Source of the DNA: Algoriphagus machipongonensis
GTDB taxonomy: Bacteria > Bacteroidota > Bacteroidia > Cytophagales > Cyclobacteriaceae
Assembly: GCF_000166275.1 (NCBI RefSeq)
Contig: NZ_CM001023.1
Location: 2,731,001 to 2,795,000 of the forward strand
Length of the DNA stretch: 64,000 bases
Direction of reading: 5' to 3'
Shown here: piece after piece, positions 18,857 to 36,337 of the stretch
Position numbering within the stretch: the stretch's first letter is position 1
How the letters are laid out: each line of letters begins with the position of its first letter
Translations under genes and position numbers: made by a program
The notes under the pieces: generated by a model
Database searches by the model: none
Seen by the model: only the letters and a program-made list of their open reading frames with translations
Told to the model about the DNA's origin: nothing

Positions 18857-19531
18857 CTAGCTGTAAACCCTATATTCTATCTCCAGCTCTTTTCCTTCTA
18901 CCACTACCCCCAAACCAAAACCTGGAATCCAATTGGAGTAAATACAAGTATGCTCTTTTACTTTCTCTGCACTTGATTTTAAGGGAATCTCTAATTTGGG
19001 AACTGTCATGGAATCCTTAACCAAAACTTGATCAAGCGGAAATGTCAGTCCTTTTCCTACCAATTTGATATAAGCTTCCTTAATACACCAGAGTCTGAAA
19101 AATGCTTCGGTCTTTTCCCTGCCTTGAGAGTTCCGAATCAAATTGATCTCCTCTACAGAGAAAAAATGAGTTGAGATCAAATCTGCCTCAATCTCTGAAT
19201 TCAAAAACTCTAAATCCACTCCTAACTCGGATTCTCTAGAGAAACCATAAAGAACGAATTCCTTGGAATGTGAGGTATTGAAAAATATTCCTTCTCCATT
19301 ATTGCTTACATACGGCTTCCCTAATTTACGCTCCTTGATAACTATCTCCTTAGGATCAATTTCTAAATACCTGGAAAGCATTTTCCGAAGAATGCTTCTT
19401 CGTTTGGTATAATGTTCCTTTAAATGGGGATACAAAAATCGATTGGCACGTGTTCTCTCTTCTTCAGAAAGAATTTCTTCATCTTCTATCAGACAGTCAT
19501 CCAGTTTGGCAATCCATAAATCAACTTTCAT
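18857..19531 (-). CDS. Sfp-type 4'-phosphopantetheinyl transferase
   Basis: 224 residues with the family motifs GVDLE (residues 104-108) and WCIKEAYIK (148-156), whose acidic residues bind magnesium and coenzyme A. It transfers 4'-phosphopantetheine from CoA to a serine of carrier-protein domains. The gene starts 11 bases after the stop of the synthetase at 19543-23733, so the two are almost surely co-transcribed. It is the obvious activator of the carrier domains in this cluster, namely the free carrier at 31987 and the carriers of both synthetases. Confidence 0.93.
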   Translation of the reverse strand: MKVDLWIAKLDDCLIEDEEILSEEERTRANRFLYPHLKEHYTKRRSILRKMLSRYLEIDPKEIVIKERKLGKPYVSNNGEGIFFNTSHSKEFVLYGFSRESELGVDLEFLNSEIEADLISTHFFSVEEINLIRNSQGREKTEAFFRLWCIKEAYIKLVGKGLTFPLDQVLVKDSMTVPKLEIPLKSSAEKVKEHTCIYSNWIPGFGLGVVVEGKELEIEYRVYS

Positions 19532-22500: not shown

Positions 22501-23733
22501 GTCAAACTTGGATACATCTAAATCCAGAACTTCAAAATCAACAGGAATACCAAGATCCCGGAATGGGTTTTCCCCGCTTGAATGCCCTACAAACATCGCT
22601 TGAAAGATCGGATTATAGCTTTGATCTTTCATCTCTTTAGAAGCCATCACAAGTTCTTCATAGCTTGGCTTCTCTGAGGAAATAGCTTTTAAAACATCGT
22701 TTTTTATCTCCTTTAGCAGTTCGGGAAATGACTTTTGTTCATCCAAACTAGCCCCTATAACCTGAGTATCCACAAAATAGCCAACCATGGACTTAAACTC
22801 CTCCTTTTCTCGATAAAGAACAGGAATGCCCACGTTCACATCCTTACTTTTCCCATATCGGCCAAGTAAAACCTGGAAAGCGGCAAGAAATATATTGAAA
22901 TCAGTGGTTTGGAATTTTTTCAGTAGACCTCCAATTTTTGGCGTAAGATCTTTTGGGAGCGAAAATCGAAGCAACTTACCCTGGTAACTGGGCGTAGCGG
23001 GCCTCGAATAATCCAATGGAAGGTCCAAAAAAGAGTCCATTAAATCCTGAGAAGGATGGATTGGAGCACTATCCTTTGGCTGTTCCTTTTGCCAATGAGT
23101 ATAATCCGAATATTGTAAATCAGCCTTGTTTAACTCTAATTTTTGACTTTCCTCTTTGCCATTTAATTCCTTATAAAAAGCAGCAAAATCAGACCTCAAA
23201 ATCCCTATAGACCAGGCATCTATAATAATATGATGAAAAGTTATGCCAATGGAATATCCCCCATTTTCCAATAGAAAAACTCCTATCCGAATTAAAGGGT
23301 CGGACTCCAGTCTAAAGGCTTTGCTGGCTAATTCCTTTTGTTTTTGTCTAGCTTCCTCTTCACTAACCTTTTGATCGTAGACCTGAAGGCTGAAACTATC
23401 CTTATCCCGGAAAACCATTACGGCTTCTTCCTCAAGGATAATGTAATTGCTGGCTAAAACACGGTGTTTATCAACTAAGTGGTCTAAGGCTTGGGTAAAA
23501 GTCTCCAAATGGAAAGCCCCTTCCTGAAATTTCCAGATTTCAAAGTAATTATATACTGGGCTTTCAGGATTTTTTTGGTAAACAAACCAAAGACGTTGCT
23601 GGGCAATCGATAAAGGATAATAGGAAGCCTGAGGAGCTTTTGGAATTTGCTCCTTGACTTGTTCATCAGCATCTTGATCGGCTTCATTAAAATTAAGCCA
23701 CTGATCCAGAAGATCATCTGAATTTTCTTCCAT
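19543..23733 (-). CDS. Nonribosomal peptide synthetase, C-A-T-(degenerate T)-TE
   Basis: 1396 residues. A condensation domain (about 35-470) has HHIIIDAWS at 167-175 in the HHxxxDG position. The adenylation domain (about 480-980) has TSGSTKKPKG, NEYGPTE and YKTGD, with the catalytic lysine at K971 in NGKVD. Aligning by eye to the GrsA pocket gives D685, S686, A689, L728, I752, A754, E778, V786, W787, K971, i.e. DSALIAEVWK, which resembles the histidine-type code DSELTAEVCK. A carrier (about 1000-1065) has its phosphopantetheine serine at S1029 (GGNS). A second carrier-like stretch (about 1073-1142) reads GGAE and lacks the serine. A thioesterase follows (S1239 in SYSIG, D1265, H1368). It is the likely final, releasing module. 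It lies in an operon with the HupE-like gene (11-base gap) upstream and the PPTase downstream. Confidence 0.93.
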   Translation of the reverse strand: MEENSDDLLDQWLNFNEADQDADEQVKEQIPKAPQASYYPLSIAQQRLWFVYQKNPESPVYNYFEIWKFQEGAFHLETFTQALDHLVDKHRVLASNYIILEEEAVMVFRDKDSFSLQVYDQKVSEEEARQKQKELASKAFRLESDPLIRIGVFLLENGGYSIGITFHHIIIDAWSIGILRSDFAAFYKELNGKEESQKLELNKADLQYSDYTHWQKEQPKDSAPIHPSQDLMDSFLDLPLDYSRPATPSYQGKLLRFSLPKDLTPKIGGLLKKFQTTDFNIFLAAFQVLLGRYGKSKDVNVGIPVLYREKEEFKSMVGYFVDTQVIGASLDEQKSFPELLKEIKNDVLKAISSEKPSYEELVMASKEMKDQSYNPIFQAMFVGHSSGENPFRDLGIPVDFEVLDLDVSKFDLTLHHFGLKEGVYQIGIEFSQDLFSSIFAERMNKHFASLLKEICDHPDLPINSYSLISEEERSFLTSGLSPDFHPENEGTVLTEILENLQSKRDQIAVVCGAERLSYGELDHRSTIISKELEKLHVDPELPIGIYMERSVDFLVSLLAIMRIGGAYLPLDPEYPDQRILQYLQESGAEYVLSHRGLLTSKTSIKEFVKTLEIDSFDYNQIIENQIFKEYSFDHKAYLIFTSGSTKKPKGVYVNHQNLYSSVAARKAYYQESPEAFLLLSSFSFDSSVAGIFWALCTGGKLVISQANESLDTSALDSIISREKISHTLMLPSLYQALIQGSENSWDSLKTVILAGEEFPNELIPSHFEKQPKTRLFNEYGPTEGTVWCTVQELKAGESFHKVPIGLATSNALAYVLDEQQELSPVGISGELCIAGAGLTKGYLSKSETDEKFLKNPYSEVWDRIYKTGDLVRIQKDGLIEYLGRKDNQVKIRGHRIELAEIQELALQFPQVQMAVALVSNEKDPQLMLAYTSGQKLEEGELISFLREKLPRFMVPDLLLQLEEFPLLPNGKVDLASIQELARSQPKAAETAFKGPSTYLERQVAGIWADVMGVEEVPVNRDFNELGGNSLQSIRIISRCRNIGIKVTPAQFLRYSTVESLVKSLHHEEYARPENLLELEVLKIWEKYLGQKLIGVKDSFQKNGGAEYEWKLVEKELNDSYEFQKPIQLSDSIQEISEKVVNKKGLVELGSKPIKRIIPVKTTGDKLPVFCIHSEFYYETVYSQLTRHLPAEYPVYGVLSVSPELVKDSVPENIGEIADLCLEEIRLIQGKGPYRILSYSIGNVVAFELAKKLKQQGEKVNLVMIDPPLFFDKSRVFGKGGYRKLFKYLDYWNKPSVLVNKLIKKVKKDKNQPVLIKDTGLLKKYLLAYKPEKIDCETLLITTPREYKHAFGWEPLVNIVDREEILGPHLKLIREPYTGQMNAAIARNLKRWDLEMD

Positions 23734-23744
23734 AGTCTAAGCTA

Positions 23745-24977
23745 CTAAAGGATTCCTTTTTCAAGCAACCAAGTATGAAGTTTCAAATCATATCCAAAAG
23801 CCCTTTCAATAATCCAATAAGTAGAAATTAACATCAACAAAATGGAGAATCCGACCAAGATGATGTTATATATTTTTAATCGACTTAAAAGGAAAAGGAT
23901 TGGAAATGCAACAATGATGATTGCCAATTGACCGATTTCAACTCCAAAATTAAAGCCTACCAAAGAATACACGAGGTACTCCCCTCCTCTTGATTGCTCC
24001 GCTAAAACTGAGGCAAAACCAAAACCATGGAATAGTCCGAACACCAAAATAATTAGCCATTCGCGTTTATTGAGAAAAGGGACAATGTTATGGAAAGCTG
24101 CCATTGCAATAGATATAGCGATAATGGACTCAACTAGTCTAGAAGGCAAATTAATCACTTCTAATGCTGCCAAACTTAAGGTGACCGAGTGTGCCAATGT
24201 AAATATCGTAATGATCTTAACTACAGATAGAAAGGCGGCTTTAAAGCTAGATTCCGGAACGAAGTCCGTGTATTTTATTCCTAACCATCTCTTTTTTGGG
24301 TCATTCTTTGATCGGTAAATAATCACAGAAGGGATCAATAAGGCGATTAAAAACAAGATATGATCCAGACCAATCCAAATATGATAGATACCCGATTTGA
24401 CCATGGCCATAAAACCTGTAAAGACAGATCCTTCTTCGATATTCAGGGTCTGAATAGGGTTAGATGTTCCATAAATCAAAGATGGAAGCGATTCATTAGC
24501 CAATACACCGGTTTTCCAATTCCGCTCTATATGCAGTAGAGACTCATGGTTATTACCTAGTTCGTTGACGAAAATCTGATCATAGATCTCTAATTCAGAT
24601 GGAACTGGTTGCATATTGCTCATGGTAAAATTGAACAATAGAAAATCATCATCCTTTAAAGTAAGAAGATCTATGGTCTCGAAACTCAAAGCATGTTCGC
24701 CCAGATTTGAGCTAAATTTCAGATTTTTAACAATGTAGGAGACAATCGCTTGAACTTCCCGACTATTGGGTTCAGGGATTTCTCCCTGCGAAAAGGAATA
24801 CCCCAGGACTTTTTCAATGTCACTCTTTTTCAACTCCACCCTACAATCCATTTCTCCCTCATAGATACTTAGGTATACATAGTTTTGATTGGGTTTGTGA
24901 GCGGATGCTTGGAATATTGAGAAGATGAAAAAAGCTAAGAATAAAAAACTAGCACGGTATATTTTGGTTCCATTCAT
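23745..24977 (-). CDS. HupE/UreJ-family membrane protein
   Basis: 410 residues: a signal peptide, an extracytoplasmic beta-rich domain (about 27-190), then six to seven helices. GIYHIWIGLDHILFLIALL, FTLAHSVTLSLA and LFHGFGFASVL hold conserved His and Asp residues within helices, characteristic of the HupE/UreJ_2 family. Some HupE/UreJ proteins are nickel or cobalt permeases; the second group with a large N-terminal domain is not well characterised. It begins the minus-strand operon with the synthetase and PPTase, which suggests transport of a metal or of the cluster product. Metal specificity is not readable. Confidence 0.85.
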   Translation of the reverse strand: MNGTKIYRASFLFLAFFIFSIFQASAHKPNQNYVYLSIYEGEMDCRVELKKSDIEKVLGYSFSQGEIPEPNSREVQAIVSYIVKNLKFSSNLGEHALSFETIDLLTLKDDDFLLFNFTMSNMQPVPSELEIYDQIFVNELGNNHESLLHIERNWKTGVLANESLPSLIYGTSNPIQTLNIEEGSVFTGFMAMVKSGIYHIWIGLDHILFLIALLIPSVIIYRSKNDPKKRWLGIKYTDFVPESSFKAAFLSVVKIITIFTLAHSVTLSLAALEVINLPSRLVESIIAISIAMAAFHNIVPFLNKREWLIILVFGLFHGFGFASVLAEQSRGGEYLVYSLVGFNFGVEIGQLAIIIVAFPILFLLSRLKIYNIILVGFSILLMLISTYWIIERAFGYDLKLHTWLLEKGIL

Positions 24978-25105: not shown

Positions 25106-26179
25106 ATGAATAAAAGTAAAGAAACGATCCTCATTGACAGTGACGCTATAATTCAGATTATCAGGAAAGTAGGGTTGAATAAAGTGATGGATGACTTAAT
25201 TTTTAATCTGGAAGATTCATTAAAAAATTATTCAGAAAAAGAAACAGAAGTTCCTGTTCGATCTGGATTTAATTATAAAAAACCTTTTTTGGGATTGGTA
25301 GAATGGATGCCTGTGATGAAAAAAGGAGAAGAAATTATTATTAAAGTGGTGGGGTATCATCCTGAAAATCCCAAAAGATTCAAGCTTCCCACCATTCTTT
25401 CTACCATTTCATCATACGATGCTCACACTGGACATTTAAATTACCTCGTGGATGGAGTTTTGCTTACCGCGATTAGGACGGGAGCTTCCAGTGCTGTTGC
25501 CAGTAAAATGATGGCTAATAAGAATTCTAAAACCTTGGGGATCATTGGATGTGGAGCACAATCCATTACACAGATACATGCGATATCCCGATTATTTCCA
25601 TTAGAAGAGATTTTGATTTATGATACCGATGAAGCCTCCATGAATAGTTTGGCAGAGCGGATCTCCCCTATCGATTTGGGAATTTCACCTAAGATCTCAA
25701 GTATTTCAGAAATCATGGAGAAAGCTGACATTTTGAGCACAGCTACTTCTATAGAACCAGAAAAAGGCCCTCTCTTCGATAGATTAAATTCAAAAACTCA
25801 TTTACATATTAATGCTGTGGGAGCTGATTTCCCTGGAAAATTTGAACTCCCAAAGTCTCTACTCCAAAAAGCCCATGTTTGTCCTGATTTTCTGGAGCAA
25901 GCGGTAGTAGAAGGTGAATGTCAGCAATTAGAACCCACAGACATCGGTCCTTCCTGGATTGATTTGATTCATGATGAGCAACTGATGAGCAAGTACCAAT
26001 CAAGTTTGAGTGTATTTGATTCTACAGGTTGGGCTCTGGAAGATCAAGTGGTTGCAAGCTTATTTGCAAAATATGCTGAGGAATTAAACCTAGGGACTAA
26101 AATGAACATAGAGTCCTATTCCACTGATGAAAAAAATCCATACGGGATGATCCATCAATTAATAGCTGATTCTCAATAA
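25106..26179 (+). CDS. Ornithine cyclodeaminase/mu-crystallin family protein
   Basis: 357 residues. The substrate-binding region around SYDAHTGHLNYLVDG and LTAIRTGASSAVASK is typical of the family, followed by the NAD-binding GIIGCGAQSITQIHA. Family members convert ornithine to proline with loss of ammonia, or catalyse related imine reductions (for example SbnB in siderophore precursor synthesis, lysine cyclodeaminase). As the first gene of the plus-strand arm of a peptide cluster with a stand-alone A domain, a carrier and a flavin dehydrogenase, supply of proline for a pyrrole or pyrroline starter is the best guess. No sbnA-like partner gene is nearby. Confidence 0.85.
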   Translation: MNKSKETILIDSDAIIQIIRKVGLNKVMDDLIFNLEDSLKNYSEKETEVPVRSGFNYKKPFLGLVEWMPVMKKGEEIIIKVVGYHPENPKRFKLPTILSTISSYDAHTGHLNYLVDGVLLTAIRTGASSAVASKMMANKNSKTLGIIGCGAQSITQIHAISRLFPLEEILIYDTDEASMNSLAERISPIDLGISPKISSISEIMEKADILSTATSIEPEKGPLFDRLNSKTHLHINAVGADFPGKFELPKSLLQKAHVCPDFLEQAVVEGECQQLEPTDIGPSWIDLIHDEQLMSKYQSSLSVFDSTGWALEDQVVASLFAKYAEELNLGTKMNIESYSTDEKNPYGMIHQLIADSQ

Positions 26180-26287: not shown

Positions 26288-28528
26288 ATGGTCAAAAAAT
26301 TACTCTCTACTTTTTTTATAACACTCCTTTTTTCCAGCTATATACAGGCTCAAGCTTTAAAAGGTAGAATTTTGGATACTTCAGGTTCCCCTATCATTGG
26401 TGCCTATATTATTCATACGACTTCAGAGCATCATGCTCATACGAATGAATCTGGGTACTTTGTTTTACCAGAAGTAACCAAAGGAGACTCGCTTCAAATC
26501 AGCCATGTCGGTTATGAAACTCAAGCTTATATAGTAGATAATCTTTCAAAAGAAGTTACCATTCGATTAAAAGAATCTGCCATTGAACTTGGAGAGGTCA
26601 TCTTTAGCCAAGATGTGAACCCAGTGAGTACACTTTCAAGAATTGACCTTAAAACCAATCCAGTAAATACTTCTCAGGATATTTTAAGAAAAGTACCTGG
26701 GCTTTTTATAGGCCAACATGCAGGAGGTGGTAAAGCTGAACAGATTTTCTTAAGAGGTTTTGATATTGATCACGGTACAGATATCAATATTTCCGTAGAT
26801 GGGATGCCTGTCAATATGGTATCGCACGCTCATGGTCAGGGTTACTCTGATTTACACTTTATTATCCCTGAGACAGTTGAGAGAATAGATTTTGACAAAG
26901 GTCCTTACAATGCTGACAAGGGTAATTTTGCCACAGCAGGATATGTGAATTTCCAGACTAAAAGAGGTTTGGATAAAAGTTCGGTTTCTGTGCAGGGAGG
27001 TAGCTTTAACAGTATAAGAACGGTAGGTCTTTTTAACCTAGTAAACAAAGTAAATAACAATGCTTATATCGCTGCCGAATATTTATCCAGCGATGGCCCA
27101 TTTGAATCCAGTCAGAATTTCAACAGATTAAATTTGATGGGTCGATATGGTGTCACCTTTGATGACGGAAGTGATTTTAGCTTAATCGCTTCACATTTTA
27201 CAAGTAAATGGGATGCCTCAGGGCAAATCCCCGTTCGAGCGGTAGAAAGTGGTCAAATCACGAATTTTGGTGCCTTAGATGATACCGAAGGTGGTTATAC
27301 AAGTAGAAGTAATATTGCTTTGAATCATTCCAAAATGATCAATGATAGACTCTTCATTAAGAACAATGCCTATTTCTCCAAGTATGATTTTGAACTGTTT
27401 TCAAACTTCACCTTTTTCTTAGAAGACTCCGTCAATGGGGATCAAATCAGACAAAGGGAAGATCGTGCCTTATTTGGCCTGGAGAGTCAATTAACCTACA
27501 GCAATACCTTTAGTGGTGGAGATTATGCTTTGCAGTTTGGCGTTGGATTAAGATCAGATGACAGCAGAGGAAATGAACTCGCCGGGACTAAAAACAGAGA
27601 TAGCGTTCGCTTTGTAACCCAAAGAGGAGATATTACCGAGGCGAATTATTACAGTTATGTAAATTTTGACTTATTTATAAATAAATGGAGAATTAATCCA
27701 GGCTTGAGAGTGGATTACTTTAACTTCCTTTATCAAGATGATTTGACTCCAGAATATGATCCAAAATCTCTAAATGCAGCTGTATTAAGTCCAAAGTTGA
27801 ACTTTATTTACACTGCAAATGAGAAGGTTCAGCTCTTCTTGAAATCAGGAATTGGATTTCACTCCAATGATACTAGAGTGGTCTTAGAGAGACCAAATAA
27901 TGAATCCATCCTTCCAAGAGGTTTTGGAGTTGATGTGGGTGGTAATTTTAAACTGATGCCGAGATTGATTGTAAACACTGCGCTTTGGTATCTAAGACTA
28001 GAGCAAGAGTTTGTTTATGTGGGAGATGCTGGTATTGTGGAGCCAAGTGGAAAAACCGGCAGAAGAGGTGTAGATTTAGGTTTGCGTTGGCAGGCAAGCA
28101 ACTGGTTGTATTTTGATGGTGACTTCACTTATTCTTATGCCAGAAGCTTAGAAGATCCAGAAGGAAATAACTTTATTCCTTTGGCACCTAGAATCACTAC
28201 TACTGGAGGATTAAGTTTAGAAAAAGACGGTTTTGCCGGTGCACTTAGAGCAAGGTATTTACAAGATCGACCAGCCAATGAAGACAATAGCGTAATTGCT
28301 GAAGGGTACACAGTTGTGGATTTAAATGCCAGTTATACATTTAATGCCATCACTGTTGGATTCTTTATTGAAAACTTATTGGATACGGATTGGAAAGAAA
28401 CCCAATTTGATACAGAGTCAAGAATCCGATTGGCAGATGGAAGTCTTGAACCAAGTCCTGTAAGTGAAATTCATTTCACTCCTGGAACACCCTTCAACTT
28501 CAGAGGTTTTGTGAAGTTCACGTTTTAA
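26288..28528 (+). CDS. TonB-dependent outer-membrane receptor
   Basis: 746 residues with a signal peptide, a carboxypeptidase-regulatory-like domain (about 22-95), a plug domain (about 110-215) and a beta barrel ending in an aromatic residue (F). The plug text FLRGFDIDHGTDINISVDG and VSHAHGQGYSDLHF is rich in His and Asp and marks a distinct receptor subgroup often seen with metal-related genes. No SusD partner is present. It sits inside the peptide cluster, 108 bases after the cyclodeaminase gene and only 4 bases before the flavin dehydrogenase gene, so it most likely imports the metal-loaded cluster product or its metal. TonB/ExbBD are not in the window. Confidence 0.92.
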   Translation: MVKKLLSTFFITLLFSSYIQAQALKGRILDTSGSPIIGAYIIHTTSEHHAHTNESGYFVLPEVTKGDSLQISHVGYETQAYIVDNLSKEVTIRLKESAIELGEVIFSQDVNPVSTLSRIDLKTNPVNTSQDILRKVPGLFIGQHAGGGKAEQIFLRGFDIDHGTDINISVDGMPVNMVSHAHGQGYSDLHFIIPETVERIDFDKGPYNADKGNFATAGYVNFQTKRGLDKSSVSVQGGSFNSIRTVGLFNLVNKVNNNAYIAAEYLSSDGPFESSQNFNRLNLMGRYGVTFDDGSDFSLIASHFTSKWDASGQIPVRAVESGQITNFGALDDTEGGYTSRSNIALNHSKMINDRLFIKNNAYFSKYDFELFSNFTFFLEDSVNGDQIRQREDRALFGLESQLTYSNTFSGGDYALQFGVGLRSDDSRGNELAGTKNRDSVRFVTQRGDITEANYYSYVNFDLFINKWRINPGLRVDYFNFLYQDDLTPEYDPKSLNAAVLSPKLNFIYTANEKVQLFLKSGIGFHSNDTRVVLERPNNESILPRGFGVDVGGNFKLMPRLIVNTALWYLRLEQEFVYVGDAGIVEPSGKTGRRGVDLGLRWQASNWLYFDGDFTYSYARSLEDPEGNNFIPLAPRITTTGGLSLEKDGFAGALRARYLQDRPANEDNSVIAEGYTVVDLNASYTFNAITVGFFIENLLDTDWKETQFDTESRIRLADGSLEPSPVSEIHFTPGTPFNFRGFVKFTF

Positions 28529-28532
28529 TAAA

Positions 28533-29678
28533 ATGAATTTTAGCTGGAGCAAGGAACAATTAGAATTAAAGAAGAAAGCCATTGAGTTTTCTGAAACTCA
28601 TCTAAATCAGGATGTTTCCGAGAAAGATCGTGGTAATATTTTCCCTTTAGAAGAATGGAAAAAATGTGCTGAATTTGGGGTTTTAGGTTGGCCTTTTAGC
28701 AAGTCTTATGGAGGAAGTGGTTTTGATCCGCTGACTACCGTGCTCATGCTAGAAGGTTTAGGCTATGGATGTAAAGACAATGGCCTCCCCTTTTCGCTCA
28801 ACTCTCAATTGTGGAGCACACAAATGGCTATCAATGCTTTTGGAACTGAAGATCAGAAGAATAAGTATCTCAAAAAACTAATATCAGGTACCATTGGAGC
28901 CTTTGGAATAACTGAAGAAGGCTCAGGTTCCGACACTTATGCTTTGGAGATGACAGCTGATAAAGTGGAAGGCGGCTATATTTTAACTGGGGAAAAGCAT
29001 TACATCACCCTCGCTCCCATTTGCGAAATAGCAGTTGTCTTTGCCACTACTAATGCCAAATTGGGCAAATGGGGTATTACAGCATTTATTGTTGATAATA
29101 CCATGGAGGGCTTTACAGTAAGCGAGGTCCGCGACAAAGTTGGAATGCGAACCACTCCCATGGGCAACCTCTATTTCAAAAACTGCTTTGTTCCCGATGA
29201 AAATAGATTGGGCAGAGAGGGTTCAGGTTTGAGTTTGTTTAGCTCTGCCATGGAATCCGAACGAGGATACATCTTTGCCAGTCAAATTGGGAGAATGGAA
29301 AAGCAATTGGAACTGTCCATTGATTATGCAAATAATCGGCAGTCATTTGGTCAAAGTATTGGCAAAAACCAATCTATATCCAACCGTATAGCCAACATGA
29401 GGCTTCGACTGGAAACTTCAAAAATGCATTTGTATAAGGTGGCTTATCTTGACCATAGTGATTTACCCTTAATGAAGGAAGCAGCGATGGCTAAATTATA
29501 TATTAGTGAAGCTTTTGTGGAATCCAGCTTGGATTTTATCCGGATTTTTGGAGCCAAAGGGGTGGTTACAGAATATGAAGTAGAGCGAGATTTACGTGAT
29601 GGCTTGGGTGGATTAATCTATTCTGGCACATCCGATATCCAAAGAAATATCATCGCCAAACTGGATGGGTTATTATGA
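28533..29678 (+). CDS. Acyl-CoA dehydrogenase-like flavoprotein, candidate aminoacyl-carrier dehydrogenase
   Basis: 381 residues with the acyl-CoA dehydrogenase fold. FGITEEGSGSDTYAL is the FAD-binding middle-domain signature, and YSGTSDIQRNIIAK the C-terminal one. In peptide clusters, close relatives (PltE, RedW, AnaB) oxidise prolyl-S-carrier to pyrrolyl or pyrrolinyl-S-carrier rather than fatty acyl-CoA. That role fits its neighbours: its last four bases (ATGA) overlap the start of a stand-alone adenylation protein, and a free carrier protein is encoded 2.3 kb downstream. Family is certain, the specific role is inference. Confidence 0.85.
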   Translation: MNFSWSKEQLELKKKAIEFSETHLNQDVSEKDRGNIFPLEEWKKCAEFGVLGWPFSKSYGGSGFDPLTTVLMLEGLGYGCKDNGLPFSLNSQLWSTQMAINAFGTEDQKNKYLKKLISGTIGAFGITEEGSGSDTYALEMTADKVEGGYILTGEKHYITLAPICEIAVVFATTNAKLGKWGITAFIVDNTMEGFTVSEVRDKVGMRTTPMGNLYFKNCFVPDENRLGREGSGLSLFSSAMESERGYIFASQIGRMEKQLELSIDYANNRQSFGQSIGKNQSISNRIANMRLRLETSKMHLYKVAYLDHSDLPLMKEAAMAKLYISEAFVESSLDFIRIFGAKGVVTEYEVERDLRDGLGGLIYSGTSDIQRNIIAKLDGLL

Positions 29679-31207
29679 ATTCAAAAACTCAAATACTGAG
29701 CGAACTCCTATCTGCCGGTGCAAAAGCAAGTCCGGAGAAGATTGCTTTTAAGTGTGCTGAAGGGCAAATTACTTATCAGGAGTTAGATCAGAAGAGTAAT
29801 CAACTTGCCAATTGGCTTGTTTCCCAAAATGTTAAACAGGGGGAACGAATAGGCATTTTGATAGAGAAAAACATAGTTACTTCCTTTGCCATTTATGGTG
29901 TGTTAAAAGCAGGTGCCGTATTGGTGGCTTTAGATCCCAGTCAACCTGCGGAGAAACTCGACGCCATTATTCAAGATTGTGGCATAAAGGTGTTACTCAC
30001 CATTCCAACACATCAGAGAAAAGTTGATCAAATGGCAACTGATGAGTTAATCATTTTAGGTTCTCAATCAGGGATCAATTGGAATACTGTTTTTCAAGAG
30101 GCAGATGACTCCCCATTAGATTTAGATATCAAACCTTCGGATCTGGCTTATATTTTATATACTTCAGGCTCTACAGGTGAACCCAAAGGGATCGTTCATA
30201 CCCACGCAAGCGGGATGGCTTATGCAAGACAATCAGCCTTGCTCTATGAAGTTACTCCTGATGATGTGATTGGAAATGTGGCCTCCTTGCATTTTGATCA
30301 AAGCACATTTGGCTATTTCTCCGCGATTTATGCAGGTTGTACCACTTATGTTTTTGGCACCAGTGAACTGATCATGCTGGGAAGTTTTTGCGAAGCAATA
30401 AAAGCAAATGAAATCAGCATTTTATACTCAGTCCCTTCTCTTTTCATCTCATTGATTCAAGGAAATTTCGATCTTGATTTCCCTAAGCTCAGATGGATCA
30501 AATATGGAGGCGAAGTCTTTCCTTCTGGAAAGTTAAATGAGTTAATCAAGAAAATACCAAGCGCTAAAATTTCCAATGTATATGGTCCTGCAGAAGTAAA
30601 TCAGTGTACTTATTACACGATTACTGAGCCAGTCAACCCAGAAAAAGAAATACCCATCGGTCAGGTTTGGAGCAATACAAACTATTTGATTCTAGACTCT
30701 GAAAACCAGCATGTAAACCCAGGAGAACAGGGCGAGTTATTAGTACACTCTTCCACTATGATGTCAGGCTATTGGAATAATGATTTTCTTAACGAAAAAG
30801 CATTTTTCTATGATATTCAAGAAGGAAAGGAAACCAAGTATTATAGGACTGGAGATTATGTCTATTTAAATGAGGACGATGAATTGGTTTTTGTAGGTAG
30901 AATGGATCGACAAGTGAAGATTAGTGGACATAGAGTAGAAATGGGGGCAATCGAGCAAGTGATACTTAGGCTTCCAGAGGTAAAAAACGTAGCTGTTTTT
31001 ACCTGCCAGCCTAATGGAACAAGAGAGCTTTGCGCAGCAATAGTCCCTAAAAATAGTACCTTGGATATGGATGAAATAAGAAAGAAGCTTTTGAATTTAT
31101 TACCCAAAACGAGCATTCCGAGAAATTTCTTCGAAGTTCAATCTCTGCCACATTCAGTGAATGGAAAAGTACACTATCTTAAGCTCGAGAAGCAGTTTTC
31201 TAATTAA
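29675..31207 (+). CDS. Stand-alone adenylation (amino acid-carrier ligase) protein
   Basis: 510 residues, a complete ANL adenylation domain without condensation or carrier domains. Motifs: YTSGSTGEPKGIVHTH (A3), NVYGPAE (A5), YRTGDY (A7) and NGKVHYLK (A10 lysine). The pocket read by eye is about D-Q-F-Y-I-Y-V-Q-C-K. It shares the Y and C positions with the PltF/CloN4 proline code DLLYLALVCK but is not a clean match. It should activate an amino acid and load it onto the free carrier at 31987. Start ATG overlaps the previous stop by 4 bases, so translation is probably coupled. Confidence 0.9.
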   Translation: MNSKTQILSELLSAGAKASPEKIAFKCAEGQITYQELDQKSNQLANWLVSQNVKQGERIGILIEKNIVTSFAIYGVLKAGAVLVALDPSQPAEKLDAIIQDCGIKVLLTIPTHQRKVDQMATDELIILGSQSGINWNTVFQEADDSPLDLDIKPSDLAYILYTSGSTGEPKGIVHTHASGMAYARQSALLYEVTPDDVIGNVASLHFDQSTFGYFSAIYAGCTTYVFGTSELIMLGSFCEAIKANEISILYSVPSLFISLIQGNFDLDFPKLRWIKYGGEVFPSGKLNELIKKIPSAKISNVYGPAEVNQCTYYTITEPVNPEKEIPIGQVWSNTNYLILDSENQHVNPGEQGELLVHSSTMMSGYWNNDFLNEKAFFYDIQEGKETKYYRTGDYVYLNEDDELVFVGRMDRQVKISGHRVEMGAIEQVILRLPEVKNVAVFTCQPNGTRELCAAIVPKNSTLDMDEIRKKLLNLLPKTSIPRNFFEVQSLPHSVNGKVHYLKLEKQFSN

Positions 31208-31225: not shown

Positions 31226-31987
31226 ATGCTAAATAAGGATCAAATCGATGCGTATCAAGAGCAAGGCTATTTACATCTAACTAGTTGGTTACAAGGTGAT
31301 GCATTGGTTCAGATCAAGGAAGCGATTGAAAAAATAGAAAAACTGGATGGTCCAGAGTTTTTTCGGGAAAAGAATTCACAGAAAATCAGGACAGTTTTTG
31401 CTCCTGAAAAATTTGATGCCTCAATTCTTGAGTTGCTTGAAAAATCCTCTTTGCCTATCCTAATTAGTCAATTGCTAAATACTGAATTTTACCTTTTCCA
31501 ATCCAAACTAAATACAAAGAGTAGCTTGGAGTCTGGGGTTTGGAGCTGGCATCAGGATTTTAAGTTCTGGAAAGAAGATGGGATGATTGCTCCCAATGCC
31601 TTAACTGTTGCAATTTTATTGTCGGATGTGGAGGTAGCAAATGGTCCTGTTTTGGCGATCCCCTCTTCCCACAAGGAAGGTGAAGTTGAATCTTACCTGA
31701 ATAATCCGGATGGAGTGCATGATGAGAACTTGAAATACATGATCACCCAAAGTACCTTGGCCAAAATGGTAAAAAAACATAGTCCAATTATACCTTTTAC
31801 TGGAAAAGCGGGCGATGTTCACATCTTCCATTGTAATCTATTGCATAGCTCTTACCAAAATATGGGTGTGGAAGACAGAAAACTCCTGATGTTTACTTTC
31901 AACCCAACAGATAATATTAAAGAAGTCACTGAGCCGCGACCTGATTATATGGTCAAAAGAAACCGAACCGCATTAAATCCAAATTAA
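31226..31987 (+). CDS. Phytanoyl-CoA dioxygenase (EctD-like) Fe(II)/2-oxoglutarate hydroxylase
   Basis: 253 residues. The iron facial triad is intact: H109 and D111 (WHQDF) and H207 (NLLHSS), with R218 as candidate 2-oxoglutarate ligand. WHQDFKFWKEDGM and GPVLAIPSSHKEG are very close to ectoine hydroxylase motifs. Because the HxD carboxylate is kept, it should hydroxylate and not halogenate. Likely target is an amino acid or carrier-bound residue of this pathway (proline ring, Asn or His); which one cannot be read. The stop codon TAA shares its last A with the ATG of the carrier gene. Confidence 0.88.
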   Translation: MLNKDQIDAYQEQGYLHLTSWLQGDALVQIKEAIEKIEKLDGPEFFREKNSQKIRTVFAPEKFDASILELLEKSSLPILISQLLNTEFYLFQSKLNTKSSLESGVWSWHQDFKFWKEDGMIAPNALTVAILLSDVEVANGPVLAIPSSHKEGEVESYLNNPDGVHDENLKYMITQSTLAKMVKKHSPIIPFTGKAGDVHIFHCNLLHSSYQNMGVEDRKLLMFTFNPTDNIKEVTEPRPDYMVKRNRTALNPN

Positions 31988-32214
31988 TGGTTGAAGAAAT
32001 TACCAATTATATCAATAAGGAAATAAATATCCTTGTCACCCAAGAGGAGGAATTACTTAGCAGTGGATTGATAGATAGTATCACTATTATGAAGCTTATT
32101 GCTCACCTAGAGGAAGCATATGAAATAAAAGTACCGCCTCAAGATATGGTCATTGAAAATTTCAATTCAGTATCCTCCATATCAGAATATATTGCTCAAC
32201 AGCAGAATAAATAA
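31987..32214 (+). CDS. Free-standing acyl/peptidyl carrier protein
   Basis: 75 residues, a four-helix carrier protein. The modification site is S31 in LIDSITIMKLI (DSxxxM/L form), preceded by the typical acidic LLSSGLID. It would carry the activated starter amino acid as a thioester after activation by the PPTase at 18857. It is translationally coupled to the dioxygenase gene (1-base overlap) and followed 7 bases later by the presumed start of the next synthetase. Its position between the stand-alone A domain and the synthetase condensation domain fits a PltL/AnaD-like starter carrier. Confidence 0.9.
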   Translation: MVEEITNYINKEINILVTQEEELLSSGLIDSITIMKLIAHLEEAYEIKVPPQDMVIENFNSVSSISEYIAQQQNK

Positions 32215-32221
32215 TTCAAGT

Positions 32222-35200
32222 TTGCAAGCATCAAAAAGCACCATTTCCAGCCTTACTGGGAGTCAACAGAGTATTTGGGCAAGTCATAAAATCGATCCCC
32301 ACTCCACTTCCAATTACTTACCACATACTTTCAAATTGAGAGGTGAAATTGATATCTATGCTTTTGAGCAAGCTTTCAATAAGCTTATCTCCAATAACGA
32401 TTCCCTAAGAACAATTTTTCAGGAAAATGAAGAGCTGGAAGTGGAGCAAATTGTGTTGCAGGAAATGGATTTCACCCTGGAATCAATACACGTTTCAGAA
32501 ACTGAGGTAAATTCTTTTATTGATCATAGAATACTTCAGCCCATAGATCTTCATCAAAGATGTTTTGATTCCACCCTGATAAAGCTCGGTGAAGAGCATT
32601 TCATCTGGTACTTAAGCGTACATCATATTTTAGCGGATGCTGCCTCTATAAAAATTCTCTTTGAAGAAATGGCCAAACTCTATCAGGCTGAGTTAAGCCA
32701 TCAAAAGATTGAATTTGAAAAAAAATCAAGTTTTGAAAAATACAGAGAGTTTGAGTTAGAGAAGCGAAATTCTAAAAACACGCCTTCAGCTGAATACTGG
32801 AAGTCCAAAGGTCAAATACCTGATAAAAAATTAGCTCTTTACGGGAATGAAAAATCTTCAAAGTCTAAAGCAAGAAGGGTCAAAATTCCTATTGATAGAG
32901 CATTAAAGGATTCATTAGACGAAAAGCTGAATACTGGAGGGTATCGCTCCTTTAACCCAGATCTTACCAAGTTTACGATTTGGTCCACGCTCTTCGCTGC
33001 CTTTATTTCCAGAATTTCCGGTGAATCAAATATTCGATTGGGAAGCCCCTTCCCTAACCGAAATCTGAGTGACTTTAAAAATACAACCGGCCTTTTGATA
33101 GAAGTGCTACCCTTTGATATTCAGGTAACTAGTGAAGATACTTTTCAGAGTCTATTTGGAAAGGTTAGGCTTGAACTTTTCGATTTTTTTAAAAACGGAT
33201 ACCCAGGCGCTCAAACAATGGAAAATGCCAGAGGAATTCACTTGGTGGTAAATTACATTCCCATTTGTTTTGGAGATTTTGGAACCATACCCTGTAAAAC
33301 CAAATGGTTATTTCCCGGGGAATTGGACCCTGGTCATCAACTCCGATTACAAGCTTTTGATTTTAATAATCAAACGAACTTGGACTACTATTTTGATGTA
33401 AATGAAGCTTATTTTACGGATTCTCAGATAGAGCTTCTCCCCGATCATTTTACGAAGCTAGTTCAGGCATTTATTTCAGATGATGGATCAAAAATATCCG
33501 ATGTTAAACTGGTAACAGATCAGGAAAAAGCTGAGCTTATTAATACGTATGAAAGCTCTGAAAACACCATCCTATCTCTTGACAATCAACTTAAAAACAT
33601 TTTTGAACAAAATTCAAATAATAGAGCCTTAGCTTTAGGAGAGGAAAGCATTTCCTTTAGAGAACTCGACATTCTTATTAATAAGACTTGTTTAAAGCTC
33701 TTAGAGCAAGGAGTCAAGCCTCAAAACGTAGTAGTTGTTCATAAGGAAAGATCTGCTGAATACATCATATCTATTCTGGCTATTTTAAGATTGGGTGCCA
33801 CATTTGTTCCCTTACCAGTAGGTTTACCTCAAAAGCGAATACAGGTCATATTGGAAGACTTAAAACCTAAATTGCTTATTAGTGCTTCCTCAGATTTTGG
33901 TTCTAATTATGCTACATCAGACATCAATCTTCAGGAACTTCGGTCTTCTGAAAACCAAAAAGCTGAATTAGAATTAGGTATAGATCAAAATCGTAGCACT
34001 TATATCCTTTTCACTTCAGGCTCTACAGGAAAACCTAAAGGAGTAGAAGTTTCTCTCCTCTCTTTAGCTAACTATATCCAAGAAGCGAAGAACTTGTATA
34101 GCAAGGGTCAGGAAGTAAGCATGCCCTTTTTTACATCGATTGGCTTTGATTTAACCATCACTTCGATATTTCTTCCACTATTAACAGGTGGATCCATCCA
34201 TATTTATCCTGAAAGCAAAGGAACATCAGATTTATCTATTCTAGAAGTTGTCAAAAACAAGCAGATAAACGCGATTAAACTTACTCCCTCCCATGCAAGA
34301 GTTATTCAAGGAAGTGAATTAAAAGACTCACAGCTACATACGGTCATTTTTGGAGGGGAAAACCTGGAAACAAATCTTGCATTGGACTTTCAATCCCAGC
34401 TGCCAGAAGCTGCAGAAATCTTCAATGAATATGGCCCCACCGAAGCAACCGTCGGATGTATCGTTCATAAATTTGACCCTAATGAAAAAGCTTTTTCTGT
34501 GCCCATAGGTAAGCCCATTTCAGATTGTTATTTCTATGTGTTAGATGAACGCTTAAATCCGGTACCGCAGGGGGTTCCAGGAAACTTATATTTAGGAGGT
34601 AAAGTCCTTGCTCTTGGGTATTATCAAAACCAAAACCTTACCGATGAATCATTTATAAACAACCCTTATCAGGATGGTCAAAAGATTTATAAATCAGGAG
34701 ATCTAGCCAGATTGAATGCCCACGGAAATCTCGAATATTTGGGAAGGGCTGATGAGCAAATAAAGCTAAATGGAGTACGAATTGAATCTACTGAATTAGA
34801 ACTACTTATCTCCAAATTCCCCAGCGTTGAGGAGACACATATAGTATTAGCGGACTCTCAAGAGGATTTATTTGAAGTTCCTGATTTTTACTGTAAAAAT
34901 TGTGGTATTCCTTCTACTTACCCTGATGCCAGCTTTAACGAAGAAGGCGTATGTAATCTTTGCGAATCATTTGAGGAGTACCAATCTAATGTCTCCACAT
35001 ACTTTAAGTCATTTGATAACCTGAAATCAGAAATATTGGGTTTAGGTGAGGAAAAAGAGAAAGAATACGACTGCTTGATGCTTTTAAGTGGAGGTAAAGA
35101 CAGTAGTTACGCTTTGGCCAAATTGGTTGAACTTGGGTTAAACGTTCTTGCTTGGACTCTGGATAACGATTTTATTTCGGATAATGCCAAGGAGAACATC

Positions 35201-36337
35201 AATAATACCACCAGTAAGCTAGGTGTTGACCATATTTATGGTAGAACAGATGCGATGAATGCGATTTTCAGAGATAGCCTAGAGCGACATCAAAACGTCT
35301 GTAATGGCTGCTTTAAAACCGTTTATACCTTAAGTACCAAACTGGCATTGGAAAAACATATACCAGTGATCGTTACTGGACTTTCCAGAGGACAATTTTT
35401 TGAAACCAGACTCACAGAAGAGCTTTTCTTAAAGGATCATTTTGACCCAGCTGATATAGATAATATCATTTTGGAGACCCGTAAATCTTACCATAGAAGT
35501 AAAGATGCAGTAAGCGAATACCTGGATGTTTCCATGTTTGAGACTGATGAAGTTTTCTCCAAAGTTTCCTTTGTTGATTTTTATCGCTTCAGCGATGTAA
35601 GTCTTTCGGAGATGATTGATTACTTAGAAAATAAAATTGGATGGAAGAGGCCAAAGGATACGGGCCGAAGCACCAATTGTATCATCAATGATCTAGGCAT
35701 CTATGTTCATAAAAGGAAAAAAGGGTATCACAACTATGCATTCCCTTATAGCTGGGATGTAAGAGTAGGACATAAAAAGCGAGAGGAAACAATAGATGAG
35801 CTGAATGATGAATTAAGTGAGAATGCAATAAAGGAGCTCATGCAAGAGATTGGAATGGAATCCCAAGGTCCTTCAAAAGAGATAAGGGCCTATTTCAAAG
35901 CTTCTTCTCAAGTAAATAAGAATGAACTCATTGCCTATTTGAGAGAATTTCTTCCTTCAAATATGATTCCTAGCATCTACATTCAAATTGATTCTTTTCC
36001 TCTTACTGCCAATGGAAAAGTAGACAAACAGGCACTCCTGAGAAGCCAAACCAAAAGTGCTCCACAAAAAAATAAGGCAATAGTTAAGCCCAAGAATAAA
36101 ATTGAAGAATTGGTGCACAGCACATGGTGCTCTGTTCTCAAAATGGATAGTATAGATGTAACGGATTCATTTATTCCGCTTGGTGGAAATTCACTTTCAG
36201 CGATTAGAATTGTATCTCTTTTAAGTAAAAGGCTCAACCTTGAAATAAGTATTCAAGAATTCTTTGAGCAAGATTCAATCCGAAAGCTCTCAGCGAGTAT
36301 TGAAGCAGAAATCAAAAAGCGGATGGGTATACATTGA
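32222..36337 (+). CDS. Nonribosomal peptide synthetase C-A-T with a PP-loop ATPase domain inserted in the A domain
   Basis: No ATG precedes the condensation domain. I use TTG 32222, 7 bases after the carrier stop (1371 residues, numbered from here); TTG 32192 or 32153 inside the carrier gene are alternatives. Condensation domain about 11-435 with HHILADAAS (134-142). Adenylation core about 455-880 with TSGSTGKPKG, NEYGPTE and YKSGD; pocket residues by eye are D643, L644, T647, K686, I709, G711, E736, V744, G745, K1266, i.e. DLTKIGEVGK, the classical asparagine code. Between the A8 region and the A10 motif (NGKVDK, 1264-1269) lies a foreign domain of about 340 residues: a zinc ribbon (C891, C894, C911, C914), a PP-loop SGGKDSS (956-962) and a CNGC (1027-1030). 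This order is that of N-acetyl sugar amidotransferases. The carrier serine is S1324 (GGNS). There is no release domain, so the chain must pass to the synthetase at 19543. Confidence 0.9.
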   Translation: MQASKSTISSLTGSQQSIWASHKIDPHSTSNYLPHTFKLRGEIDIYAFEQAFNKLISNNDSLRTIFQENEELEVEQIVLQEMDFTLESIHVSETEVNSFIDHRILQPIDLHQRCFDSTLIKLGEEHFIWYLSVHHILADAASIKILFEEMAKLYQAELSHQKIEFEKKSSFEKYREFELEKRNSKNTPSAEYWKSKGQIPDKKLALYGNEKSSKSKARRVKIPIDRALKDSLDEKLNTGGYRSFNPDLTKFTIWSTLFAAFISRISGESNIRLGSPFPNRNLSDFKNTTGLLIEVLPFDIQVTSEDTFQSLFGKVRLELFDFFKNGYPGAQTMENARGIHLVVNYIPICFGDFGTIPCKTKWLFPGELDPGHQLRLQAFDFNNQTNLDYYFDVNEAYFTDSQIELLPDHFTKLVQAFISDDGSKISDVKLVTDQEKAELINTYESSENTILSLDNQLKNIFEQNSNNRALALGEESISFRELDILINKTCLKLLEQGVKPQNVVVVHKERSAEYIISILAILRLGATFVPLPVGLPQKRIQVILEDLKPKLLISASSDFGSNYATSDINLQELRSSENQKAELELGIDQNRSTYILFTSGSTGKPKGVEVSLLSLANYIQEAKNLYSKGQEVSMPFFTSIGFDLTITSIFLPLLTGGSIHIYPESKGTSDLSILEVVKNKQINAIKLTPSHARVIQGSELKDSQLHTVIFGGENLETNLALDFQSQLPEAAEIFNEYGPTEATVGCIVHKFDPNEKAFSVPIGKPISDCYFYVLDERLNPVPQGVPGNLYLGGKVLALGYYQNQNLTDESFINNPYQDGQKIYKSGDLARLNAHGNLEYLGRADEQIKLNGVRIESTELELLISKFPSVEETHIVLADSQEDLFEVPDFYCKNCGIPSTYPDASFNEEGVCNLCESFEEYQSNVSTYFKSFDNLKSEILGLGEEKEKEYDCLMLLSGGKDSSYALAKLVELGLNVLAWTLDNDFISDNAKENINNTTSKLGVDHIYGRTDAMNAIFRDSLERHQNVCNGCFKTVYTLSTKLALEKHIPVIVTGLSRGQFFETRLTEELFLKDHFDPADIDNIILETRKSYHRSKDAVSEYLDVSMFETDEVFSKVSFVDFYRFSDVSLSEMIDYLENKIGWKRPKDTGRSTNCIINDLGIYVHKRKKGYHNYAFPYSWDVRVGHKKREETIDELNDELSENAIKELMQEIGMESQGPSKEIRAYFKASSQVNKNELIAYLREFLPSNMIPSIYIQIDSFPLTANGKVDKQALLRSQTKSAPQKNKAIVKPKNKIEELVHSTWCSVLKMDSIDVTDSFIPLGGNSLSAIRIVSLLSKRLNLEISIQEFFEQDSIRKLSASIEAEIKKRMGIH

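What the first reader, a model, noticed from the sequence alone, without database searches (positions are those of the whole stretch)
34865..35890. Asparagine-type adenylation domain interrupted by a complete PP-loop ATPase domain
Seen: between the A8-like segment and the A10 lysine motif NGKVDK, where A domains normally run straight on, the synthetase carries about 340 extra residues with two zinc-ribbon Cys pairs, SGGKDSS and CNGC. Known: this site is where methyltransferase, ketoreductase or monooxygenase domains interrupt some A domains; PP-loop enzymes of the WbpG (amidine-forming) and TtuA/CtaC (thiolating) kind activate a carbonyl by adenylation and add N or S. Inference: the domain adenylates the Asn side chain or a peptide carbonyl on the carrier and converts it to an amidine or thioamide. 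I do not know of a described A domain interrupted by a PP-loop domain. This is my first choice for a new system.
Basis: partly seen in the sequence, partly recalled or inferred. Interest (0 to 1): 0.88.

Follow-up and report, generated by a model that had tools for sequence, protein, structure and literature searches.

The report
Nitrile-forming domain inside a peptide synthetase
A bacterial peptide-making enzyme carries a built-in second enzyme that probably turns the amino acid asparagine into a nitrile or an isomer; this kind of insertion is already known from two antibiotics, but here it sits in a widespread gene set, for which I found no description, that looks made for capturing a metal.

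Summary
In the C-A-T synthetase at 32153-36337 a 342-residue PP-loop domain (34865-35890) interrupts an Asn-type A domain between a8 and A10; all motifs are intact.

The claim that no such insertion is described is wrong. It is the AMDH (aminomutase/amide dehydratase) domain of cystobactamid CysH, also reported in albicidin AlbIV, where carrier-bound Asn becomes beta-cyanoalanine or isoasparagine (PMC7966384). Two CysH-like domains in cystobactamid-type clusters are 50% and 48% identical to it, share its catalytic motifs and fall in its clade. Nitrile or isoAsn is far likelier than amidine or thioamide.

Two additions. (1) CNGC plus a distant Cys, invariant in 78 of 78 inserts, resembles the three-Cys [4Fe-4S] site of TtuA, LarE and CtaC and would explain dark-brown CysH. 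(2) Most well-flanked relatives lie in a cassette: HupE-type permease, proline-type A/carrier/dehydrogenase starter, Asn-AMDH module and a module with code DSALIAEVW, plus a cyclodeaminase in some and a TonB receptor in Bacteroidota. HupE or dehydrogenase neighbours occur under ten phylum-level labels. I read it as a metallophore, perhaps Pro*-Asn*-His. Ten limited literature searches showed no description of the cassette.

The parts
34865..35890 (+). AMDH-type PP-loop domain inserted in the A domain (342 aa)
   Evidence: (TIGR03573 137.1 bits, cut-off 203.2)
32153..36337 (+). NRPS module C-A(AMDH)-T; Asn code DLTKIGEVG; the upstream end of the frame overlaps the carrier gene, so the true start is probably a later codon
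34889..34963 (+). N-terminal zinc-ribbon-like Cys pairs (CKNC, CNLC)
   Evidence: C10, C13, C33 78/78 and C30 77/78
35087..35107 (+). PP-loop SGGKDSS
35300..35311 (+). CNGC, first two of three Cys of a putative [4Fe-4S] site
   Evidence: 78/78; aligns with CYNC of MmLarE
35666..35680 (+). RSTNC, third Cys of the putative [4Fe-4S] site
   Evidence: (78/78)
31987..32214 (+). free carrier protein of the starter
   Evidence: as a separate frame in 26 of 43 well-flanked loci
31226..31987 (+). PhyH-type 2OG oxygenase (ectoine-hydroxylase-like); found in 5 of 91 contexts
29675..31207 (+). stand-alone A domain, pocket D-Q-F-Y-K-G-V-Q-C by eye (proline-type by recall)
   Evidence: as a separate frame in 38 of 43 well-flanked loci
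28533..29678 (+). acyl-CoA-dehydrogenase-fold enzyme; best solved relative is prolyl-ACP dehydrogenase 4irn
26288..28528 (+). TonB-dependent outer-membrane receptor
25106..26179 (+). ornithine cyclodeaminase family protein
23745..24977 (-). HupE_UreJ_2 predicted metal permease, long form with an N-terminal region
19543..23733 (-). second NRPS, C-A-T-TE, code DSALIAEVW
18857..19531 (-). phosphopantetheinyl transferase

Best explanation
The insert is an AMDH (aminomutase/amide dehydratase) domain. The A domain loads Asn onto the module's own T domain; the inserted PP-loop domain then uses ATP to activate the side-chain amide oxygen (as an O-adenylate, by analogy with other ATP-dependent nitrile synthetases such as QueC) and expels it, giving beta-cyano-L-alanine, or after hydroxylation isomerises the residue to isoasparagine. 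A [4Fe-4S] cluster held by CNGC and the Cys of RSTNC, with one open iron, probably takes part, for instance as a Lewis acid. The residue is joined to a proline-derived starter (A, free carrier and prolyl-ACP-dehydrogenase-like enzyme) and passed to a third module (code DSALIAEVW), and the product serves metal uptake through the TonB receptor and HupE permease encoded beside it. Shown here: architecture, Asn code, kinship with CysH-like domains, invariant motifs, cassette conservation. Inferred: the reaction, the Fe-S cluster, the starter chemistry, metal binding.
For: In CysH the AMDH domain converts carrier-bound Asn (+114 Da) to +96 Da (beta-cyano-Ala) in vitro; deleting the domain abolishes cyano-Ala and isoAsn linkers; CysH is dark brown; homologues are all inserted in Asn-type A domains (PMC7966384, parts 1-3 of 8 of its single main-text section read). 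CysH-like domains of G579 and G577 are 50% and 48% identical to the window insert, sit in cystobactamid-type clusters (TauD oxygenase, O-methyltransferase, PabAB-like, thioesterase: for G579; similar order in G577) and share CNGC, RSTNC and YSWDVRxGH. All 45 inserts form one clade (100/99); the CysH-like pair and the window lie together in a 43-row sub-clade (97/91). Catalytic columns are invariant in 78 of 78 inserts. The Asn code is in 72 of 72 fully read A domains with at most one conservative change. The A2 profile's best solved match is LarE 8cnz, CNGC on CYNC, E 2.5e-10 (titled mmLarE-[4Fe-4S]). Pfam QueC matches the CysH-like protein of G579 in its insert. Cassette: of 43 loci with at least 9 kb on both sides, HupE in 37, dehydrogenase in 26, TonB in 19, cyclodeaminase in 16, stand-alone A frame in 38, separate carrier frame in 26. 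DSALIAEVW-type code in 38 of the 40 loci (of 80) in which a further NRPS A code could be read.
Against: No activity was tested for any cassette member; identity to CysH-like domains is only about 50%. The published paper saw no classical CxxCxxxC motif. The three-Cys set also occurs in 4 of 30 WbuX-type proteins, one of them (L036) beside HisH and HisF motifs, so it does not by itself name a reaction. TonB receptors like the window's were found only in Bacteroidota (26 of 34 loci) and once in Balneolota/Rhodothermota (1 of 4), in 0 of the other 42 loci, among them 0 of 9 Pseudomonadota and 0 of 4 cyanobacteria. No shared site was found upstream of HupE. The metal role therefore rests on context alone.
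Confidence: 0.75

Rival explanations
1. Thioamide synthetase: the three-Cys [4Fe-4S] PP-loop domain puts sulfur into the Asn side-chain amide or the backbone amide, an in-cis CtaC, giving a ring-N/thioamide chelator of the methanobactin type.
For: CxxC plus distant Cys as in TtuA/LarE/CtaC; Cys spacing close to CtaC (C154, C157, C284 in PMC6772006 against 146, 149, 272 here); LarE is the best profile match; metal-type transport genes beside it.
Against: The CysH-like relatives share the same three Cys, and CysH makes beta-cyano-Ala and isoAsn, not a thioamide (PMC7966384); they fall in the same clade. The CtaC sequence itself was not compared.
Confidence: 0.1
2. Amidine former of the WbpG/WbuX kind using ammonia from a HisH/HisF-like partner.
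Against: Below the TIGR03573 cut-off (137.1 against 203.2 bits). HisH motif in 0 of 91 NRPS contexts against 17 of 30 WbuX loci searched only about 1.5 kb each side. Separate clade with a long stem.
Confidence: 0.04
3. AMDH as above, but the cassette makes an antibiotic or signal, not a metallophore; HupE and the receptor serve export, immunity or something else. (This rival shares the AMDH part with the best explanation, so the odds overlap.)
For: The two characterised AMDH clusters make antibiotics (PMC7966384); HupE_UreJ_2 function is not tested for this long form; the TonB receptor is confined to Bacteroidota and one Balneolota/Rhodothermota locus in this sample; no shared upstream site found.
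Against: HupE-type permease in 37 of 43 well-flanked loci and TonB receptors in 19 of 43, with only 1-4 HupE_UreJ_2 genes per genome in 12 genomes.
Confidence: 0.3

Closest known systems
CysH AMDH domain, cystobactamid biosynthesis (PMC7966384)
   Same: PP-loop domain inserted in an Asn-type A domain; SGGKD; CNGC and RSTNC in CysH-like proteins of cystobactamid-type clusters; about 50% identity; one clade
   Different: CysH is a stand-alone A-AMDH-T that hands its residue over in trans; here the module is in line, C-A(AMDH)-T, with a prolyl-type starter and metal-type transport genes
AlbIV (Alb04), albicidin biosynthesis (described in PMC8949500 and PMC7966384)
   Same: Asn-activating A domain with a 342-residue SGGKD alpha-ANH-like extension, product beta-cyano-Ala
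   Different: stand-alone A-T; sequence not obtained here
QueC/ToyM and ArtA nitrile synthetases
   Different: free-standing, other substrates; ArtA is argininosuccinate-synthetase-like; no CxxC plus distant Cys of this kind known to me (recall)
CtaC thioamide synthetase (PMC6772006); TtuA, NcsA, LarE
   Same: PP-loop plus three-Cys [4Fe-4S] site; CtaC also acts on a carrier-bound substrate
   Different: sulfur insertion; not part of an A domain; the AMDH clade's experimental member forms nitrile/isoAsn
WbpG/WbuX N-acetyl sugar amidotransferase (8wex)
   Same: overall fold and N-terminal Cys pairs
   Different: below family cut-off; no HisH/HisF partner; three-Cys set in only 4 of 30 sampled WbuX-type proteins

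Membership tests
AMDH-interrupted A domain (CysH, AlbIV) | 38-kDa-size domain inserted in an A domain (a8-a9 region) | tested here: met
   342 aa between A8 (ends 34786) and A10 (36011)
AMDH-interrupted A domain (CysH, AlbIV) | Asn-specific A code | tested here: met
   DLTKIGEVG; Asn-type in 72 of 72 fully read A domains, 3 of 75 incomplete
AMDH-interrupted A domain (CysH, AlbIV) | SGGKD ATP motif | tested here: met
   35087-35107; 78/78
AMDH-interrupted A domain (CysH, AlbIV) | sequence kinship with the characterised domain | tested here: met
The original CysH and AlbIV sequences were not compared
AMDH-interrupted A domain (CysH, AlbIV) | dehydrates or isomerises carrier-bound Asn | not testable with these tools
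   needs intact-protein mass spectrometry
WbuX / N-acetyl sugar amidotransferase (TIGR03573) | score over the curated cut-off | tested here: not met
   137.1 bits against 203.2
WbuX / N-acetyl sugar amidotransferase (TIGR03573) | HisH/HisF ammonia-supplying partners nearby | tested here: not met
   HisH motif in 0 of 91 contexts; 17 of 30 WbuX loci have it (motif from recall)
TtuA/LarE/CtaC Fe-S PP-loop enzymes | CxxC plus distant Cys | tested here: met
   C146, C149, C272 in 78/78; CNGC on LarE CYNC
TtuA/LarE/CtaC Fe-S PP-loop enzymes | bound [4Fe-4S] cluster | not testable with these tools
   brown colour of CysH is reported (PMC7966384); no metal analysis seen in the parts read
TtuA/LarE/CtaC Fe-S PP-loop enzymes | sulfur insertion | not testable with these tools
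   CysH forms nitrile/isoAsn instead (PMC7966384)
Metallophore biosynthesis cluster | dedicated outer- and inner-membrane metal-type transporters | tested here: inconclusive
   window has both; HupE 37/43 but TonB 19/43, the latter only in Bacteroidota and one Balneolota/Rhodothermota locus
Metallophore biosynthesis cluster | product binds metal | not testable with these tools
   -

The most novel reading that the evidence does not exclude
AMDH domains have their main home in a widespread, so far undescribed metallophore family built on one conserved tripeptide: a dehydrated proline, an Asn-derived residue (beta-cyano-Ala or isoAsn) and a third residue with code DSALIAEVW, closest among codes I recall to His of bacitracin synthetase. 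This would be a nonribosomal X-Y-His (ATCUN-like) chelator for Cu(II) or Ni(II), taken up through HupE and, in Bacteroidota, the TonB receptor, with the residue change made by a [4Fe-4S]-dependent dehydratase/aminomutase built into the A domain. The antibiotics albicidin and cystobactamid would share the domain by transfer; the direction is open.
Probability: 0.27. Interest if true: 0.85.

Novelty: new member of a known kind. Interest (0 to 1): 0.5.

Why it matters
The AMDH reaction is reported, but its mechanism was left open and its many homologues had no known product (PMC7966384). Recognising a TtuA/LarE/CtaC-type three-Cys site gives a direct test of the cofactor and links this nitrile formation to the Fe-S PP-loop enzymes. 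Finding most of the well-flanked relatives in one conserved, permease-linked cassette under many phylum labels, with named strains of marine Bacteroidota and cyanobacteria among them, points to a common but uncharacterised small molecule, perhaps for metal uptake, and gives a short list of strains to test.

Tried and rejected
Amidine formation (WbpG): rejected as the leading idea because of score, missing partners and tree. Thioamide formation: my own leading idea until; demoted when a review (PMC8949500) and then PMC7966384 showed that AlbIV and CysH carry the same insertion and make nitrile/isoAsn, and when CysH-like proteins proved to share the three Cys. Frameshift or joint artefact: rejected. 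Regulator site upstream of HupE: no 10-mer shared by more than 4 of 47 upstream regions (one of them only 2 bases long) and no obvious common palindrome in the lists. Fatuamide A (cyanobacterial copper metallophore; passages of PMC11877528): salicylate-thiazoline parts, no match to this cassette. Copper TonB family of PMC12914433 (passages): the term HupE does not occur. The search of solved structures with the second NRPS A domain did not settle its substrate. The viral structure library and the second structure-prediction job were not used. The structure comparison is a second look only at Foldseek's matches; families missing there are not excluded.

Rows dropped or weak: 3 of 80 loci (L117, L134 no frame found, L125 frame without the domain) before the 78-insert count. 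The 75 codes come from 74 loci and the window; 3 were incomplete and are left out of the 72. Of the 80 loci, 12 have another NRPS frame without the DSALIAEVW-type code: two read otherwise (L118, L134), ten gave no readable code. WbuX sample: the 30 handed out as loci, of 57 matches over the cut-off; one of the 30 (L028) was cut short by my slicing. A first count of carrier-like tblastn hits (40 of 43) is not used because it can pick up T domains; the separate-frame count is 26 of 43.

Literature: 10 answered searches in an open-licence library only. The statement that I found no description of the cassette rests on these.
Full report
OBSERVATION. The frame 32153-36337 encodes C-A-T with a single A domain. 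Between the A8 segment, ending at 34786, and NGKVDK at 36011-36028, where an A domain normally runs straight on, lies a domain of about 342 residues with two Cys pairs, SGGKDSS, CNGC and, further on, RSTNC. The A pocket reads DLTKIGEVG, Asn-type. The site is the a8-a9 region where methyltransferase, oxidase and ketoreductase insertions occur (passages of PMC11355689).

DISTRIBUTION. A search with the insert region gave 2085 proteins at E <= 1e-3, of which 120 are listed, nearly all synthetases of the same size. In 196 genomes of the same family, 10 including the window's own carry a full-length match at 40% identity or more; 41 genomes have any match at E <= 0.001, the rest being shorter or weaker PP-loop matches. 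Many are metagenome bins, so single labels may be wrong. Of the 80, 77 gave extractable inserts: with the window, the PP-loop, C10, C13, C33, C146, C149 and C272 are invariant in 78 of 78, C30 in 77. Of 75 A-domain codes read, 60 are DLTKIGEVG, 9 DLTKVGEVG, 3 single-change variants and 3 incomplete.

ALREADY DESCRIBED. A review states that albicidin Alb04 has a 342-residue SGGKD extension in an Asn-activating A-T module and that the same domain in cystobactamid biosynthesis was named AMDH (PMC8949500, section 4.1 read). The primary paper (PMC7966384; parts 1-3 of 8 of the single main-text section and some passages read) shows that CysH converts loaded Asn to beta-cyano-Ala in vitro, that removing the domain abolishes cyano-Ala and isoAsn linkers, that a carrier-acting oxygenase (CysJ) steers between the two, that the protein is dark brown, that no CxxCxxxC was seen, that the mechanism is unknown, and that numerous homologues all sit in Asn-type A domains with no known product.

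LINK TO CysH. Among 195 genomes of the phylum of a Myxococcota locus, 3 have the domain at E <= 1e-40, one being the starting genome; the other two (G579, G577) have A-insert-T frames of 1004 and 1036 aa, with inserts 50% and 48% identical to the window's. G579's neighbourhood has a TauD oxygenase, O-methyltransferase, PabAB-like protein, thioesterase and a two-A-domain NRPS with thioesterase; G577's is similar by order and sequence starts. Both inserts keep CNGC, RSTNC and YSWDVRxGH. In a tree of 45 inserts and 30 WbuX-type rows the inserts form one clade (100/99); the CysH-like pair and the window fall in a 43-row sub-clade (97/91) that leaves out L011 and L012. The order within that sub-clade is largely unresolved, and the tool warns that the long stems to the outgroup may join falsely.

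THE CASSETTE. In the window the module is preceded by a cyclodeaminase, a TonB receptor, a dehydrogenase whose best solved relative is prolyl-ACP dehydrogenase 4irn (383 bits, next 281), a stand-alone A domain, a PhyH oxygenase and a free carrier; divergently lie HupE_UreJ_2 and a C-A-T-TE synthetase. Of 43 loci with at least 9 kb on both sides, HupE-like genes occur in 37, dehydrogenase in 26, TonB in 19, cyclodeaminase in 16; three (L086, L092, L134) have none of HupE, dehydrogenase and cyclodeaminase. Stand-alone A frames are in 38 and separate carrier frames in 26 of the 43. The bit-score thresholds were mine; the weak HupE hit in L057 is a gene cut by the locus end (positions 143-3). By label, HupE or dehydrogenase neighbours are seen in 10 of 13 labelled groups of the 80 loci, not in the single Gemmatimonadota, Calditrichota and Eremiobacterota loci; TonB receptors like the window's only in Bacteroidota (26 of 34) and Balneolota/Rhodothermota (1 of 4). 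As a baseline, 12 genomes hold 24 HupE_UreJ_2 genes, 1-4 each, so chance nearness would be about 1% (my arithmetic); the long form of 416-447 aa lies beside the module in six genomes (G000, G123, G066, G046, G009, G090), and no HupE lies near the modules of G005, G013 and G142. Controls: L139, L140 and L141 around CysH-like genes show none of HupE, cyclodeaminase, TonB, dehydrogenase or carrier hits, though L139 has little flank on one side; of the two outlying-insert loci, L025 has a weaker dehydrogenase (130 bits) and a carrier, and L024 none by this search but a cyclodeaminase-family gene by clustering.

THIRD MODULE. A further A domain reads DSALIAEVW or a near variant in 38 of the 40 loci, of 80, in which a further code could be read; L118 and L134 differ, and ten more loci have a further NRPS frame without a readable code. 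Zobellia and related flavobacteria lack the dehydrogenase and cyclodeaminase within reach and have another starter code, so the starter is not the same everywhere.

HOW IT MOST LIKELY WORKS. By homology: Asn loaded on the T domain is changed by the inserted domain. Inferred: ATP adenylates the side-chain amide oxygen and loss of AMP gives the nitrile, as proposed for other ATP-dependent nitrile synthetases (passages of PMC13060819). The three invariant Cys match the [4Fe-4S] site of TtuA/LarE/CtaC (CtaC residues from PMC6772006, parts 1 and 2 of 3 read) and would explain the brown CysH; an open iron could act as a Lewis acid on the amide, as in aconitase (recall). The PhyH oxygenase could play CysJ's part in the 5 of 91 contexts that have it. 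The proline-type starter rests on a recalled pocket code and on the dehydrogenase. The third code resembles one I recall for His in bacitracin synthetase; this is unverified, and diaminopropionate is the alternative. Pro*-Asn*-His would be an X-Y-His chelator; with HupE, and TonB in Bacteroidota, a metallophore is my preferred reading of the cassette, at moderate confidence.

VERDICT. The domain insertion is a known kind and its chemistry is reported. The in-line arrangement, the Fe-S-type site and the widespread permease-linked cassette were not found described in the searches made, and are the part worth following.

Noticed in passing
L033, L036, L038, L042 (stand-alone WbuX-type proteins): A minority of TIGR03573 proteins (4 of 30 sampled) carry CWHC plus a third Cys, one beside HisH/HisF motifs; they may be a separate Fe-S subgroup under the WbuX name.
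   Followed up: partly
L011 / L024 8119-11043 (genome G013): An AMDH-like insert, 45% identical, in an A domain whose code reads DAQDIGVVD, not Asn-type, within a larger NRPS cluster: a possible change of substrate.
   Followed up: no
L058 4956-5393 and 15 other contexts: A small His-rich protein without a convincing Pfam family lies between the AMDH module and the TonB receptor in flavobacterial cassettes.
   Followed up: partly
genomes G316, G324, G245: PP-loop proteins with open frames of about 680 aa matching TIGR03573 below its cut-off, not examined.
   Followed up: no
window 32621-32641: The condensation-domain motif HHxxxDG reads HHILADA; 101 of 120 relatives also have Ala in the last place.
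   Followed up: no
L059 11494-12837 and 10 other contexts: An EryCIII-like glycosyltransferase accompanies the cassette in 11 contexts.
   Followed up: no
L142 7175-12439, L143 6130-11381: In G009 and G090 the third module is followed by a 262-aa protein similar in sequence start to the methyltransferase-like c16 group and two further NRPS fragments of 660 and 823-827 aa.
   Followed up: no
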